Source: Hoyosella altamirensis
Lineage (GTDB): Bacteria > Actinomycetota > Actinomycetes > Mycobacteriales > Mycobacteriaceae
Direction: 5' to 3'
Length of the DNA: 64,000 nt
Assembly (NCBI RefSeq): GCF_014191505.1
Contig: NZ_JACHWS010000001.1
Coordinates: forward strand, 1,116,001 to 1,180,000
Numbering within the stretch: position 1 is the stretch's first letter; each line of letters starts with the position of its first letter. The notes under the pieces were generated by a model that ran no database searches, was not told where the DNA came from, and saw only the letters and a list, made by a program, of their open reading frames with translations. Position numbers and translations under genes: made by a program. Below, piece by piece: positions 6,485-47,525 of the stretch.

Positions 6485-7702
6485 ATGGGACACTCTGAAG
6501 CGCTCATCTATGACGCGATCCGTACACCGCGAGGGAAAGGTAAAGCCTCGGGGTCCCTGCATTCCGTGAAACCAATCGACCTCGTCACTGGACTGATCGA
6601 CGCACTCATCGCGCGCAATCCCGCCGCGGACCCAACGACGATCGACGATGTCGTACTGGGCATTGTGTCGCCAGTTGGCGACCAAGGAGCCGTGCTGCCC
6701 CGAACAGCCGCATTGTTATCCGGCCTTTCGGACTCTGTGGCCGGTGTACAAACCAACAGGTTCTGCGCGTCGGGGCTTGAGGCCGTCAATCTCGCTGCCC
6801 AGAAGGTGCGCTCAGGCTGGGAAGACCTCGTACTCGCCGGAGGCGTGGAATCCATGTCGCGGGTGAAGATGGGGTCAGACGGTGGTGCGTGGCCGATGGA
6901 CCCTCACAGCAATTACGTCACATCGTTCGTCCCCCAGGGGATTGGTGCGGACCTCATCGCGACGATGGAGGGGTTCAGCCGTACACAGGTGGATGAATTC
7001 GCTGTGCGCTCACAGGAACGTGCTGCGAAGGCCTGGTCCGACGGCAGGTTCGCGAACTCAGTCATCCCCGTCGCGGATATGCACGGTATGCCCGTACTCG
7101 ATCGGGACGAGCACATGCGCCCAGATGCGACGGTGGAATCCCTCGCGGCGCTGCAGCCCTCTTTCACCGTGATCGGTGACCAGGGCGGGTTCGATGCCGT
7201 TGCACTCCAGAAGTATCACTGGGTGGAAAAGATCGAGCACGTCCACCACGCTGGCAATTCGTCGGGAATTGTCGATGGCGCCTCGCTGGTGCTGATCGGC
7301 AGCGAAGCCGCGGGCGTGCGGAATGGTCTCACCCCGCGCGGCCGCGTCGTGTCAACAGCGGTGGTTGGTACCGAACCCACAATCATGCTGACCGGACCGG
7401 CACCTGCCGCGCAGAAAGCTCTGGACAAGGCGGGGCTCACCTTTGATGACATTGACCTGTTTGAAGTCAATGAGGCGTTCGCGTCCGTCGTCCTGAAGTT
7501 CATCGCCGATACCGGAGTCGATATCGACAAGGTCAACGTGAATGGTGGCTCGATCGCGATGGGGCACCCCCTTGGCGCCACAGGGGCAATGATTCTCGGC
7601 ACATTGCTCGACGAGCTGGAACGCCGCGGTGACCGCTACGGCCTCGCCACGCTGTGCGTGGGCGCAGGCATGGGGATCGCCACCGTCATCGAACGCGTAT
7701 GA
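6485..7702 (+). CDS. fadA: Acetyl-CoA C-acyltransferase (3-ketoacyl-CoA thiolase)
   Basis: A 405-aa thiolase catalysing CoA-dependent cleavage of 3-ketoacyl-CoA, the last beta-oxidation step. The acyl-accepting cysteine is Cys94 ([11 protein letters not shown]); the C-terminal catalytic pair is His361 ([10 protein letters not shown]) and Cys391 (CVGAGMG); NEAFASV and [13 protein letters not shown] motifs are present. ATG 6485 has an AAGGAC ribosome-binding site; an earlier in-frame ATG at 6422 lacks one and would add residues not expected in the family. First gene of an operon with fadB 31 bp downstream, together forming the two subunits of a trifunctional-type complex. Confidence 0.93.
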
Positions 7703-7733
7703 ACCTACATTCTTTTCCAGGGAGACCACGACA

Positions 7734-11674
<3,941 letters not shown>

Positions 11675-43827: not shown

Positions 43828-43834
43828 CGGCATG

Positions 43835-43852
43835 ACCACCCCTTGGGTGGGT
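43835..43852. promoter_or_regulatory. 18-nt near-palindrome upstream of RiPP precursor
   Basis: ACCACCCCTTGGGTGGGT contains perfect CCACCC-CTT-GGGTGG arms. It matches 37895-37912 at 16 of 18 positions and ends 76 bp before the precursor ATG. It could be an operator, or a weak terminator of the upstream crotonase gene (ends 43827), but the second copy is not behind a gene, favouring an operator. Confidence 0.55.
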
Positions 43853-43883
43853 ATTTCGTGGCGCAGATCTCTCAGAGGATAAC

Positions 43884-43906
43884 GGTGGGTCCAAAAAGGG
43901 CCCACC
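43884..43906 (+). promoter_or_regulatory. Stem-loop in the 5' leader of the RiPP precursor
   Basis: GGTGGGTCC pairs with GGGCCCACC (one T-G wobble) around an AAAAA loop, 22 bp before the precursor ATG and just upstream of its ribosome site GAAGAGGGAG. It may stabilise the leader of the abundant precursor mRNA or gate translation. Confidence 0.5.
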
Positions 43907-43928
43907 ACACCGGAAGAGGGAGAACACC

Positions 43929-44090
43929 ATGAGCATCGAAGTTATGGCGCGGTCGTTGATCGAGGCGGCAGACACGGACGTAATGGAGCGCGTGATCGTG
44001 GAGGACGCGGCCTTCGAGTCATTCGCCAGCGAGTACGCGACGATGTCGTCGCGACCGCTGTACGGCTGCAAGGGGTGCCACGGCGGCTGA
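43929..44090 (+). CDS. Putative RiPP precursor peptide, 53 aa
   Basis: A 53-residue ORF: acidic helical leader (MSIEVMARSLIEAADTDVME, RVIVEDAAFESFASEYATM) and a short C-terminal core SSRPLYGCKGCHGG with Cys47, Cys50, His51 and terminal Gly-Gly. AGGGAG lies eight bases upstream. The tail contains a CXXCH motif. Codon use is like its neighbours. It is followed within 12 bp by an ATP-grasp, a SagB-type oxidoreductase and a transporter, the classic order of a RiPP cluster. The core is rich in Ser, Cys and Gly, the residues altered in such peptides. Not previously recognised by me as a family. Confidence 0.75.
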   Translation: MSIEVMARSLIEAADTDVMERVIVEDAAFESFASEYATMSSRPLYGCKGCHGG

Positions 44091-44102
44091 GGAACCACAC
44101 CG

Positions 44103-45212
44103 ATGACGACCCCCGCTATGCCGCTTCTGCTCCGCGCGAAGCGCCCTGTCACAGAACTGCACCCACACTCCCGGGACTTCCAGGCGCGTGTGGGCCACCC
44201 ACAGCGACAGTCCTCCCACGCTGGCCACCCGCCAGCATGCGTGCTCACCCTGACGCGAACAGCGGACCAGGAAATAGACGCATTGTCCCTACAGCTTGCT
44301 GCCCAGGGGATCCCACTGGTCCGCATTGACGCGGATCGGTGCACCCAGGCAGAAACGCTCTGGGATCCGGTCACGGGCACGCTGCACTGGGAGGGGAACA
44401 CGTTTCGGCCTGTAGTGTGCTGGCGCAGATATTTCGACGCGCAGGCAATGAGGCTGCAGGGCACCGGCAGGCATAGCGCGGGACGTCTCGAAACGCACTA
44501 CATGCGGGACCAATGGTCCGCATGGGGTCACGCGATGGCGGCGAGCGTAGTGCGGCGCATCAATCATTCAGCGGGGTCCAGCCCGCCCGATCGGATCAGT
44601 CAGCTACGGGCGGCGCGCTCAGCCGGACTGCGTATACCCGCTACCGCCGTAACATCGGTGCCGGCCAGCGCTCTCAAAGCGATTGCTGGTGAGGGTGATC
44701 TCTTAGTCAAGAGTCTGGGGCACCACGCGGTCGAGTCCGCACCGGGACAGCTGCACGGCGTATATCCGGAACGGTTGCGCCGCGACGCGATACGTACGTA
44801 CACCTCGCCGGAGCTGGCGCCGGTCCTGGTTCAGGAATTCGTCGAAGCCGACAGAGAACTCCGTGTCTACATCATCGGGGCTCAGATGGTTGCGTATGCG
44901 GTCACCCGGCCAGCACCAGAGGCGCTGTGGACAACGCCAGATTCCATCTTCGTCGAGGAGTGCACTATCCCCGCCGCCATCGAAGTCGCGCTATGGAGAG
45001 TAGCTAACCAATTCGGTCTCGAAATGGCAGCGTTCGACCTGCTCGACGCTCCAGGCGGACCCGTCTTTCTGGAAGTCAACACCCATTCAGATTGGCTCTG
45101 GGCGGAGCGAAAAGCGAAGTCTGATGCGGTATCCCGCGCTGTCCACACGATGGTTAAAGACCTCTTCGAGGCACACGACACCGCACCCGAGGGGAGCACG
45201 ACACATGCCTGA
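44103..45212 (+). CDS. ATP-grasp ligase of RiPP-maturase type
   Basis: 369 aa, ATP-grasp fold like MvdD/RimK and the RiPP-maturase ATP-grasp families: a Rossmann-like N-lobe (VLTLTRTADQEIDALSLQL, about 47-66), Lys203 in DLLVKSLGH, VQEFVEADRELRVYIIG (242-259), and AFDLLDAPGGPVFLEVNTHSD with metal ligands Asp312, Glu324, Asn326. These enzymes phosphorylate a carboxylate and join it to an amine, hydroxyl or thiol. Start 44103 has GAGG nine bases upstream, but residues 1-45 look poorly conserved, so GTG codons at about residues 30 or 47 are possible. It would act on the adjacent precursor. Confidence 0.85.
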   Translation: MTTPAMPLLLRAKRPVTELHPHSRDFQARVGHPQRQSSHAGHPPACVLTLTRTADQEIDALSLQLAAQGIPLVRIDADRCTQAETLWDPVTGTLHWEGNTFRPVVCWRRYFDAQAMRLQGTGRHSAGRLETHYMRDQWSAWGHAMAASVVRRINHSAGSSPPDRISQLRAARSAGLRIPATAVTSVPASALKAIAGEGDLLVKSLGHHAVESAPGQLHGVYPERLRRDAIRTYTSPELAPVLVQEFVEADRELRVYIIGAQMVAYAVTRPAPEALWTTPDSIFVEECTIPAAIEVALWRVANQFGLEMAAFDLLDAPGGPVFLEVNTHSDWLWAERKAKSDAVSRAVHTMVKDLFEAHDTAPEGSTTHA

Positions 45213-46275
45213 GATCAAAACCGCGGACCACGCCGTGATGTTCACCCAGGATGGGAAAATCGTGTGGGACGACTACGTCAACCACCGACAGTTCGCACTC
45301 ACGGACGAGAGCTTGCGGATCGTCCGCTGGTTTGGGGTGTGGCGTGAACTCGAATCGATCGGTACGCGCGGCTCGCTCGATCATGCGATAGCGTCACGTC
45401 TCCTCGAGGAAGGTGTACTTGTCGAGTACGGTTCAGATCAGCACGTTCGCGAGGAGCAGCTGACCAAGGAATGGGGTCGCTGGGGCAGAGGGCCCGAGTA
45501 CCAGCATTTCTCCGCGCGCACGACAACGGACGCACGCTTTTATAGCGTGATCGAAGACGAGATGATGTCTGTGGACCGCGCGCTGAGCGATCCACCGCCT
45601 TCGCCCTGGCGTACCTTCGACGATGCGCCGGTGGTCCCGGTGGCGCAGCGCCGCCCGGATGATTCAGCTTGGATGCGGCCCCGTTTGGTAGATGCTCTGT
45701 ACGGTCGGCGTTCGGTGCGCCAATTCACTCAAGATGCGGCACCATTGGAGCAGCTAGGCATCGTTGCGCAATTGGCTGTGGGCGCTGTCGAGGTGATTGA
45801 CCATCCCGCGTTAGGTCAAGTCGTGCTGAAAACCAGCCCATCGGCTGGCGCTCGAAGCCCTATCGAGCTTTACCTCTACAGCCGCAACGTCGATGGGCTC
45901 GACGAGGGGCTCTACCATTTCGCCGCGCACCGGGGCGGCTTCGAACGCATTGGCGCCAAAGTTGCTGCCAGCGAAATGCGGGCGGCTGTGGGAGACCAGC
46001 CATGGCTCAGCGAGTGTGCCGCTCTGTTCGTCTACACCGCTGTGCTGGAGCGGACATCATGGAGGTACGCTTCGGCGCGCGCGTACCGCGACATACTCAT
46101 CGAAGTCGGTCACATCAGTCAGACGGTGCTGGTATCCGCATCCGCCCTAGGGCTCGGAGCGGTGACCGCCACCGCAGTCCGTGACGAACTGCTCGAACGG
46201 ATGATCGGGGCTGATCCTGCCGCGGAACCAGTTCTCGGGGTCACCGCACTGGGAATTCCATTGGAGAGCGCTTAA
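45205..46275 (+). CDS. SagB-type nitroreductase-fold oxidoreductase
   Basis: 356 aa, ATG overlapping the ATP-grasp stop by eight bases. The C-terminal half is the SagB/McbC FMN domain: GRRSVRQF (168-174), SPSAGARSPIELYLYSRN (211-228), GLDEGLYHFAA. The N-terminal about 110 residues (AVMFTQDGKIVWDDYVNHRQ ... WGRWGRGPEYQHF) resemble the winged-helix/leader-binding region fused to such dehydrogenases. In azole RiPPs SagB oxidises azolines to azoles after YcaO cyclisation; no YcaO gene is present here, so it may oxidise another bond made on the precursor. Confidence 0.85.
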   Translation: MPEIKTADHAVMFTQDGKIVWDDYVNHRQFALTDESLRIVRWFGVWRELESIGTRGSLDHAIASRLLEEGVLVEYGSDQHVREEQLTKEWGRWGRGPEYQHFSARTTTDARFYSVIEDEMMSVDRALSDPPPSPWRTFDDAPVVPVAQRRPDDSAWMRPRLVDALYGRRSVRQFTQDAAPLEQLGIVAQLAVGAVEVIDHPALGQVVLKTSPSAGARSPIELYLYSRNVDGLDEGLYHFAAHRGGFERIGAKVAASEMRAAVGDQPWLSECAALFVYTAVLERTSWRYASARAYRDILIEVGHISQTVLVSASALGLGAVTATAVRDELLERMIGADPAAEPVLGVTALGIPLESA

Positions 46276-46277
46276 CC

Positions 46278-47525
46278 GTGGCCACACAAACCGGTGCGCG
46301 CGCGGGTTCGCGACGAGACTTCACCCTGCTGTGGACGGGGCAGGCAGTCTCCGAGCTCGGGAGCCGTGGTTACGGAATCGCGATCATGCTGTGGGTACTC
46401 GCTATGACGGGTTCGCCAGCGATCGTGGGGATGACGGCAACTGTCACGATGGCTTCGTTCGCGCTGTTCAATGTGCCCGCGGGATGGATTGTTGACCACG
46501 CGGACCGTAAACGCACGATGGTGGGAGCTGATCTGCTCGGTGCGGGGGCCGCGACAACGCTTGCCGCCACTGTTTCCGCCAACTCGTTTGTTCTCGCCCA
46601 CATCCTTACTGTCGGTGCAGTGCTTGGCGCCGCCTGGTGTGTTCGCGGTTTAGCAGAAGAAGCCGCCCTCCCACACGTTGTTGGTGACGGCGAACTTACG
46701 CGCGCTGTCAGTCTGGTGGAGGGCCGCGGTTATGCGGCAGGGCTGGCCGGCCCGCCCCTCGCCACAGCGCTGTACGCGATGGCGCCGGTGCTGCCGTTCG
46801 CCGCGCATGCCGTCTCATTTGTGACTGCTGCGTCTACGGCGTCAGCGGTGAAATCTCCACTGCGAACGGCAAGCCTCGAAGACTCTCATGTTCAGGCATC
46901 GCTGGGCGACGGGTTCAGGTTCGTGTGGCGGGATCCTTTTCTCCGGCCCGCCGCTTTGATCGGCGCGCTCTCCGTATTGGTCACAAATGGCGCCGGCCTC
47001 GTCCTGATCGTCATCCTGACAAATACGGGGGCGGCGGTGGTGGCGGTGGGGTTCGCTCTTGCCGCAGCCTATGGTGCCGGGATCGGTGGCAGCCTGATGG
47101 TGCCGCGGCTGCAGCGGCACCATTCAGCTCATGTACTGCTCAGTGTCTCGCTTCTCGCTGGTGCCATCGCCCTGGCGATGATGGTGATGGGTGATCCAGT
47201 TGCAGCAACCGTGGGCTACTCGCTCCTGCTGGCCGCCCAGCCGCTATGGCAGGTGACCGTCTCCGCAACAATGCTAGAAGTAACGCCCGATGAGCTTCGC
47301 GGCCGTGCTGGCGGCGCGCTCGGCCTGGTGGCTACCGTACCTGCGGTATTCGCACCGCTTTGTGCGGGCATTCTGGCGGTATCGCTGGGCGTCGCGACTA
47401 CTGTCTCGCTTCTGACTGCCGCACTGCTCGCCGGTTTCCTCTTCACCTTGCGAGCCCGAGGCTTGCGTGCCGTACCGAGCTACTTGCTGGGCCGGGATCG
47501 CAGTTCGTTCAGCACCAGACCGTAA
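46278..47525 (+). CDS. MFS transporter, putative peptide exporter
   Basis: 415 aa, GTG start two bases after the SagB stop. About 12 membrane segments of the MFS 3/ EmrB-like efflux type (DFTLLWTGQAVSELGSRGYG, NVPAGWIVDHADRKRTMVGA, LWQVTVSATMLEVTPDELRG). As last gene of the RiPP cluster it most plausibly exports the finished peptide and gives self-protection. No protease gene is in the cluster, so leader removal must come from elsewhere. Ends overlap the convergent DUF gene by 46 bases. Confidence 0.85.
   Translation: MATQTGARAGSRRDFTLLWTGQAVSELGSRGYGIAIMLWVLAMTGSPAIVGMTATVTMASFALFNVPAGWIVDHADRKRTMVGADLLGAGAATTLAATVSANSFVLAHILTVGAVLGAAWCVRGLAEEAALPHVVGDGELTRAVSLVEGRGYAAGLAGPPLATALYAMAPVLPFAAHAVSFVTAASTASAVKSPLRTASLEDSHVQASLGDGFRFVWRDPFLRPAALIGALSVLVTNGAGLVLIVILTNTGAAVVAVGFALAAAYGAGIGGSLMVPRLQRHHSAHVLLSVSLLAGAIALAMMVMGDPVAATVGYSLLLAAQPLWQVTVSATMLEVTPDELRGRAGGALGLVATVPAVFAPLCAGILAVSLGVATTVSLLTAALLAGFLFTLRARGLRAVPSYLLGRDRSSFSTRP

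What the first reader, a model, noticed from the sequence alone, without database searches (positions are those of the whole stretch)
43835..47525. Candidate unannotated RiPP cluster: precursor, ATP-grasp, SagB oxidoreductase, MFS exporter
Seen: a 53-aa ORF with acidic helical leader and a Cys/Ser/Gly core, then ATP-grasp (12 bp gap), SagB-type FMN protein (8-nt overlap), MFS (2-nt gap). Known: ATP-grasps and SagB enzymes act on peptide precursors. Inferred: a ribosomal peptide with a new enzyme pairing, since SagB normally follows YcaO, which is absent. No lanthionine, radical-SAM or YcaO gene is near. The chemistry (ligation then oxidation of a Cys/Ser core) cannot be predicted.
Basis: partly seen in the sequence, partly recalled or inferred. 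Interest (0 to 1): 0.92.

Follow-up and report, generated by a model that had tools for sequence, protein, structure and literature searches.

The report
Cysteine peptide cluster with ATP-grasp, SagB
A four-gene bacterial cluster appears to make a small ribosomal peptide with a conserved cysteine-rich tail, using two tailoring enzymes and an exporter; it belongs to a wider family in which a flavin enzyme seems to work without its usual partner, so its chemistry is an open but testable question.

Summary
The genes are as described: 53-aa ORF, ATP-grasp, SagB, MFS, tightly packed. The small ORF is a real precursor: the genus sister and five genomes outside the genus carry a homologous peptide ending CKGCHGG, CKSCHGG or CGKGCH before the same genes. 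The ATP-grasps of these 7 loci form one clade, 96/95, and are homologous to graspetide ligases. YcaO is found in 0 of the 7 genomes, and SagB has Arg where McbC has Lys201 in 6 of 6 compared, so ordinary azoline oxidation is unlikely. Four of 7 precursors have no acidic residue after the leader's conserved Tyr, so usual graspetide links are unlikely there. The leader is shared with ATP-grasp peptides ending KKDD, with or without SagB (73 of 77 loci), and with Cys-free SagB-only peptides, one in this genome. The ATP-grasp/SagB pairing was reported in 2022 (PMC8939145); my searches found no report of the Cys-core or SagB-only types. Chemistry is inferred. Verdict: new variant of a known kind.

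The parts
43884..43906 (+). strong RNA hairpin (9-bp stem) between the upstream gene and the precursor start; possible attenuator or boundary
   Evidence: z -3.94 for 43828-43928; sister z -2.98, nearly identical DNA; the four other loci folded gave z 0.54, -1.23, -0.26, -1.69, so its role is uncertain
43929..44090 (+). precursor peptide, 53 aa, in no family of the libraries searched; ends YGCKGCHGG
44001..44036 (+). conserved leader motif (E25-Y36, EDAAFESFASEY), related to the KKDD-type and SagB-only leaders
44067..44087 (+). conserved core CKGCHGG (C47-G53); K, C and H of K-[GS]-C-H invariant in 7 of 7
44103..45212 (+). ATP-grasp ligase, homologous to graspetide ligases
45205..46275 (+). 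SagB-type FMN oxidoreductase; Arg287-Tyr288 aligned with McbC Lys201-Tyr202
46278..47525 (+). MFS exporter
   Evidence: next to SagB in all 7 Cys-core loci, only a tail in L178

Best explanation
This is a four-gene ribosomal-peptide cluster of a distinct Cys-core type. Shown by comparison: a 53-aa precursor with a leader motif EDAAFxxFASxY and a short core CKGCHGG, kept with an ATP-grasp ligase, a SagB flavoenzyme and an MFS exporter, in genomes without YcaO. Inferred: both enzymes dock on the shared leader. The ATP-grasp phosphorylates a carboxylate; because the core of most members has none of its own, the likeliest is the C-terminal carboxylate, which would be joined to the invariant Lys side chain or to an outside amine. 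SagB then oxidises the peptide by a route that needs no YcaO and no azoline, and the MFS protein exports the product. Which bonds form is not known.
For: Same gene order and homologous Cys-tailed precursor in 7 loci. ATP-grasp clade 96/95, one origin in 98% of 200 bootstrap trees. ATP-grasp homology to AMdnB, 5ig8/5ig9, CdnC and 7drm, FLEVN and ELR stretches kept. YcaO in 0 of 7 genomes. Arg at the McbC Lys201 position in 6 of 6 Cys-type SagBs compared. No D/E after the conserved Tyr in 4 of 7 precursors, two of them near-copies. SagB-only loci keep a homologous leader, 29.4-36.2 bits against 12.6 for the best of 2000 shuffles, and loci with the ATP-grasp but no SagB keep a related leader.
Against: No leader peptidase among the four genes. 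L169, L170 and L178 carry acidic residues between the conserved Tyr and the core, so ordinary links are not excluded there. Leader links are uneven: the KKDD profile scores W, L180, L035, L170 and L169 at 11.3-17.0 bits but L178 at 9.3 and P. nigra (L057) at 4.2; the SagB-only profile scores L057 at 5.1, below shuffles; the Cys profile exceeds the best shuffle (11.7) for only 6 of 10 KKDD precursors; and the KKDD profile does not find the SagB-only leaders (at most 7.8 against 16.0 for a shuffle), nor the reverse (at most 1.5 against 6.6). The tree program warns that L057 and L180 join as long branches.
Confidence: 0.55

Rival explanations
1. A true graspetide: the ATP-grasp makes ordinary side-chain ester or amide links using acidic residues upstream of the Cys tail, and SagB is an extra tailoring step.
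For: Ligase homology to AMdnB, 5ig8 and CdnC. Acidic residues occur after the conserved Tyr in L169, L170 and L178.
Against: No acidic residue after the conserved Tyr in 4 of 7 precursors, the window's included. The window leader has no Pro, so the 'Phhx(1,2)h' motif named in PMC8939145 is absent.
Confidence: 0.2
2. Azole-type chemistry: the cysteines become thiazolines, formed by the ATP-grasp instead of YcaO, and SagB oxidises them to thiazoles.
For: SagB homology to McbC and CyaGox (that these are azoline oxidases is recalled). Conserved cysteines in the core.
Against: YcaO in 0 of 7 genomes, so the ring-forming step would itself be new. The McbC Lys201 position is Arg in 6 of 6. Related SagBs sit with precursors that have no Cys tail.
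Confidence: 0.1
3. The ATP-grasp adds an outside amino acid to the peptide C-terminus, as RimK-type ligases do, and SagB oxidises the added residue; the ribosomal peptide is mainly a carrier.
For: RimK-family similarity of the ligase. The C-terminal tails are short and nearly fixed: KKDD-like in 73 of 77 loci, K[GS]CH in 7 of 7.
Against: The conserved Cys and Lys would be unexplained. None of the four genes looks like a supply gene for a special amino acid.
Confidence: 0.15

Closest known systems
Branch 6 ATP-grasp loci with SagB-like nitroreductase, precursor clusters 367 and 1115 (PMC8939145, 2022)
   Same: ATP-grasp next to a SagB-like enzyme and a small precursor without the usual leader motif
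   Different: I saw passages and one part of one section, not the figures or tables, so identity with either precursor cluster is unknown. What I read mentions neither a Cys core with MFS nor a SagB-only form.
Graspetides (microviridin and relatives; AMdnB and CdnC ligases)
   Same: Homologous ATP-grasp ligase beside a short precursor
   Different: No conserved acidic donor in the core; SagB and MFS partners; 'Phhx(1,2)h' leader motif absent
Linear azole peptides (microcin B17, streptolysin S)
   Same: SagB/McbC-type flavoenzyme with a peptide precursor
   Different: No YcaO match in any of the 7 genomes; Arg instead of Lys at the McbC Lys201 position
TIGR04511 'putative peptide maturation dehydrogenase'
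   Same: Best-scoring NCBIfam model for the SagB (133 bits)
   Different: Below its cut-off of 240 bits

Membership tests
Graspetides | ATP-grasp ligase homologous to known graspetide ligases | tested here: met
   7m4s AMdnB E 7.2e-34, 5ig8 6.9e-30, 7mgv CdnC 1.8e-29 (that these are graspetide ligases is recalled); below the TIGR04187 cut-off
Graspetides | Acidic donor residues plus Ser/Thr/Lys acceptors in the core | tested here: not met
   no D/E after the conserved Tyr in window, L035, L180, L057; present in L169, L170, L178
Graspetides | Leader motif 'Phhx(1,2)h' (named in PMC8939145) | tested here: not met
   the first Pro of the window precursor is residue 43; the other precursors were not tested for it
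Graspetides | Side-chain ester or amide cross-links in the product | not testable with these tools
   Needs mass spectrometry
Linear azole-containing peptides | YcaO cyclodehydratase | tested here: not met
   0 of 7 genomes at E 0.001; the control search rings in 5 of 14 known genomes
Linear azole-containing peptides | SagB/McbC-type dehydrogenase | tested here: met
   TIGR03605 101.5-101.8 bits against 78.4
Linear azole-containing peptides | Lys-Tyr pair at McbC 201-202 (its catalytic role is recalled) | tested here: not met
   Arg-Tyr in 6 of 6 Cys-type SagBs compared
TIGR04511 dehydrogenases | Score over the curated cut-off | tested here: not met
   133 bits against 240
Branch 6 precursor clusters 367 / 1115 | Sequence match to those precursor clusters | not testable with these tools
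   Consensus is in a figure and in supplements that could not be read

The most novel reading that the evidence does not exclude
One leader family (motif roughly hydrophobic-x-x-[aromatic/His/Leu]-x-x-[E/D]-Y) serves a modular set of peptide systems: ATP-grasp alone, ATP-grasp plus SagB, ATP-grasp plus SagB plus exporter, and SagB alone. In it SagB carries out a new YcaO-free oxidation and the ATP-grasp acts on the peptide C-terminus. The Cys type yields a small CxxCH-like metal- or haem-binding peptide.
Probability: 0.25. Interest if true: 0.85.

Novelty: new variant of a known kind. Interest (0 to 1): 0.6.

Why it matters
SagB enzymes are known as the oxidising partner of YcaO in azole peptides (general knowledge). 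Here SagB appears with a ligase of another class, or alone, and the genomes with the Cys-type cluster have no YcaO match. That makes 'what does SagB do without YcaO?' testable with one short peptide and one or two enzymes. The system also gives natural comparisons (four enzyme combinations on related leaders) for separating leader recognition from chemistry.

Tried and rejected
Rejected: lanthipeptide or radical-SAM cluster; YcaO supplied from elsewhere in the genome; chance ORF. Led nowhere: promoter scan (0 found); the upstream hairpin as a family feature; plasmid search with SagB (9 records, all under 60% identity, not followed); the BTAD/TPR regulator near one SagB-only locus (L181), not pursued; structure prediction (switched off). 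Weak ATP-grasp matches: one search matched 64 of 298 genomes at E 0.001, but besides the window only 11 at E 1e-40 or better; I followed those 11. The 18 weaker loci it also fetched (L013-L030) were only scanned with the precursor profile, without a credible hit; its other weak matches were not looked at. Not all SagB places were fetched (for example G713, G858, G860, G864, G865).

Literature: searches listed PMC8939145 for ATP-grasp with SagB or nitroreductase. One search also listed PMC12710340; the passages I saw name both enzymes only as RiPP markers. One search also listed PMC9928984 and PMC10668837, and PMC13039773 and PMC10452190; these four I did not open. Searches found no paper. Of PMC8939145 I saw passages and section 6 part 2. 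Of PMC3743902 I saw passages.
Full report
Observation. The four genes are present at the stated places with the stated spacing. Best family matches are TIGR04187 for the ATP-grasp (91.6 bits, below the cut-off of 350), TIGR03605 over its cut-off and TIGR04511 below its cut-off for SagB, and MFS_1 for the exporter. The 53-aa ORF has no credible match in Pfam or NCBIfam.

Genome. The sister G679 has a 4,738,809-base contig, the chromosome size given for Amycolicicoccus subflavus DQS3-9A1 in PMC3743902 (passages), so the genus is probably the one now called Hoyosella (name recalled). G679 carries all four genes at 93-94% protein identity. The third genome, G678, has no ATP-grasp match and no match to the upstream enoyl-CoA hydratase.

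Precursor. Between window and sister the precursor has 4 synonymous and 3 non-synonymous codon differences, too few to prove selection alone. Relatives of the ATP-grasp (30-40% identity) in Pseudonocardiaceae and Rubrobacteraceae have a short upstream ORF ending KKDD or similar. A profile of 10 such precursors, both sequences of this genus left out, finds the window precursor first of 1684 frames (E 0.0013) and scores it 17.0 bits against at most 10.3 in 2000 shuffles. The match covers ERVIVEDAAFESFASEYAT, so the leader is related and the core is not.

Cys-core type. Pseudonocardia nigra (L057) came from the named-genome scan. A SagB alignment searched in 390 genomes of the family of G239 and 401 genomes sampled from the window's family, with 20 loci fetched and read, gave G1167, G1176, G1320, G960 and G924; G924 (L179) holds the same locus as L057. 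With window and sister these are 7 loci. All have the order precursor, ATP-grasp, SagB, MFS; in G1320 (L178) the SagB match stops at residue 220 and an MFS tail follows, a remnant or an assembly fault. The precursors end YGCKGCHGG, GCKGCHGG, VCKGCHGG, ICKSCHGG and PCGKGCH; K, C and H of K-[GS]-C-H are invariant in 7 of 7. K[GSA]CH, with or without GG, before a stop was found in these 7 loci and nowhere else in the 1.94 Mb (overlapping loci included) held then. The 7 ATP-grasps form one group (96/95; 98% of bootstrap trees; 28 rows), with a warning that L057 and L180 join as long branches. The type is rare: 2 of 18 genomes of the genus of G1167; in the genus of G1320, 2 of 148 sampled genomes matched the ATP-grasp alignment, and the second, G1397 (L193, E 5.9e-55), showed no precursor by profile.

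Wider family. Of 77 loci from the named genome collection, 73 have a KKD-type precursor: 49 without SagB, 23 with SagB, 1 with SagB and an MFS match; 1 is the Cys type; 3 have none (L113, L115, and L125, which is cut off). The scan used one peptide pattern and 80 stretches, and some species occur twice, so these are not frequencies. G239, which has an ATP-grasp without adjacent SagB, has no SagB match at E 1e-50; G111, G223, G231, G215 and G274, of the same kind, are not among its 66 matching genomes (rows without a match are mostly not printed).

SagB without ATP-grasp. The window's genome has a second SagB at G000:C1:796659-797720, also in G679, G678 and four genomes of genus g351; no ATP-grasp match lies in the 17-18 kb around any of the 7. 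Just upstream of each is an ORF that, read from an internal start codon in some, gives 47 aa, such as MNIDEMARGLFDTVAADDVVLAAFSVEAAAFRAHKSDYIESRPRPLS. The Cys-type profile scores these 7 at 29.4-36.2 bits against 12.6 for the best of 2000 shuffles; their profile scores the window precursor 25.4 bits and 6 of the 7 Cys precursors at 19.7-34.3 against 11.8, but L057 only 5.1. Codon differences, silent to changing: 4:1, 25:2, 11:3 and 22:7 within a genus, 13:19 between genera. Their ends have no Cys. Among SagB loci, I read 31 fetched loci (3 duplicates, 1 with ATP-grasp); of the 27 left, 22 have a small upstream ORF with a similar motif, hydrophobic-x-x-[YFHLW]-x-x-[EDN]-Y, and 5 have none. That motif was written after reading four of them, and most belong to one orthologous group. 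ATP-grasp absence there means within the few kilobases held. In 12 loci the motif ORF stood upstream of SagB in 9, against 0 of 1044 control windows; two misses have ORFs over the length limit, and L188 has none. This is motif-level support only: the profiles did not find these ORFs in the loci scanned.

Enzymes. The ATP-grasp profile matches AMdnB, 5ig8 and 5ig9, CdnC and 7drm, with FLEVN and ELR stretches kept. SagB matches 3eo7, CyaGox and McbC. McbC Lys201-Tyr202 falls on Arg-Tyr in 6 of 6 Cys-type SagBs compared (L178 left out as truncated), Arg-Phe in 7 of 7 second-copy SagBs, and Lys-Tyr or Arg-Tyr elsewhere; that these McbC residues are catalytic is recalled. YcaO has no match in the 7 genomes, LanC none in the window's genome, radical SAM none in the window.

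Mechanism. Shown: conservation of precursor, enzymes and order; a related leader; absence of YcaO. Inferred: leader docking by both enzymes, carboxylate activation by the ATP-grasp, flavin oxidation by SagB, export by MFS. In 4 of 7 Cys precursors (window and its near-copy L035, L180, L057) no acidic residue follows the conserved Tyr, which leaves the C-terminal carboxylate or leader residues. L169, L170 and L178 do have acidic residues there, so the argument is not complete. The C-x-x-C-H tail resembles the haem-attachment motif (recalled); P. nigra has C-x-x-x-C-H. I did not look for haem-handling genes, so this is only a lead.

Known or new. PMC8939145 reports ATP-grasp loci of 'branch 6' with a SagB-like enzyme and precursor clusters 367 and 1115, and says branch 6 products are possibly outside the graspetide class. 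The KKDD type may be one of those clusters; I could not see the sequences. The searches showed me no description of the Cys-core type, the SagB-only type or the shared leader; the library holds only open-licence papers, and four listed papers were not opened. I therefore call it a new variant of a known kind.

Noticed in passing
L171 (G000:C1:788000-806000), SagB at 8660-9715: Second SagB of the window's own genome with an upstream 47-aa leader-homologous ORF and no ATP-grasp in the 18 kb held; the same in 7 genomes.
   Followed up: partly
L036:7397-8719 and cluster 3: An NDH-2-like oxidoreductase gene (Pfam run on L036 only) lies upstream of the KKDD precursor and ATP-grasp in 10 of the 15 loci compared (L036-L045), suggesting an old chromosomal role rather than a mobile metabolite cluster.
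   Followed up: no
L194-L213, for example L194:1857-1979 (- strand): Conserved 40-aa ORF (MHDEDDDEFLYELEAEYKAQ...FRSR) upstream of SagB in many loci of one large genus (unnamed here; probably Amycolatopsis, my inference).
   Followed up: partly
L178 (G1320:C139), 7677-8642: SagB match truncated at residue 220 and followed by an MFS tail: decayed copy of the Cys-type cluster, or an assembly fault.
   Followed up: no
L104:8162-9394: Actinomadura locus with KKDN precursor, ATP-grasp, SagB and MFS has a JmjC/cupin-type gene between SagB and MFS, a possible extra tailoring enzyme.
   Followed up: no
window 43836-43850 and 43884-43906: Terminator-like stem and strong hairpin before the precursor.
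   Followed up: partly
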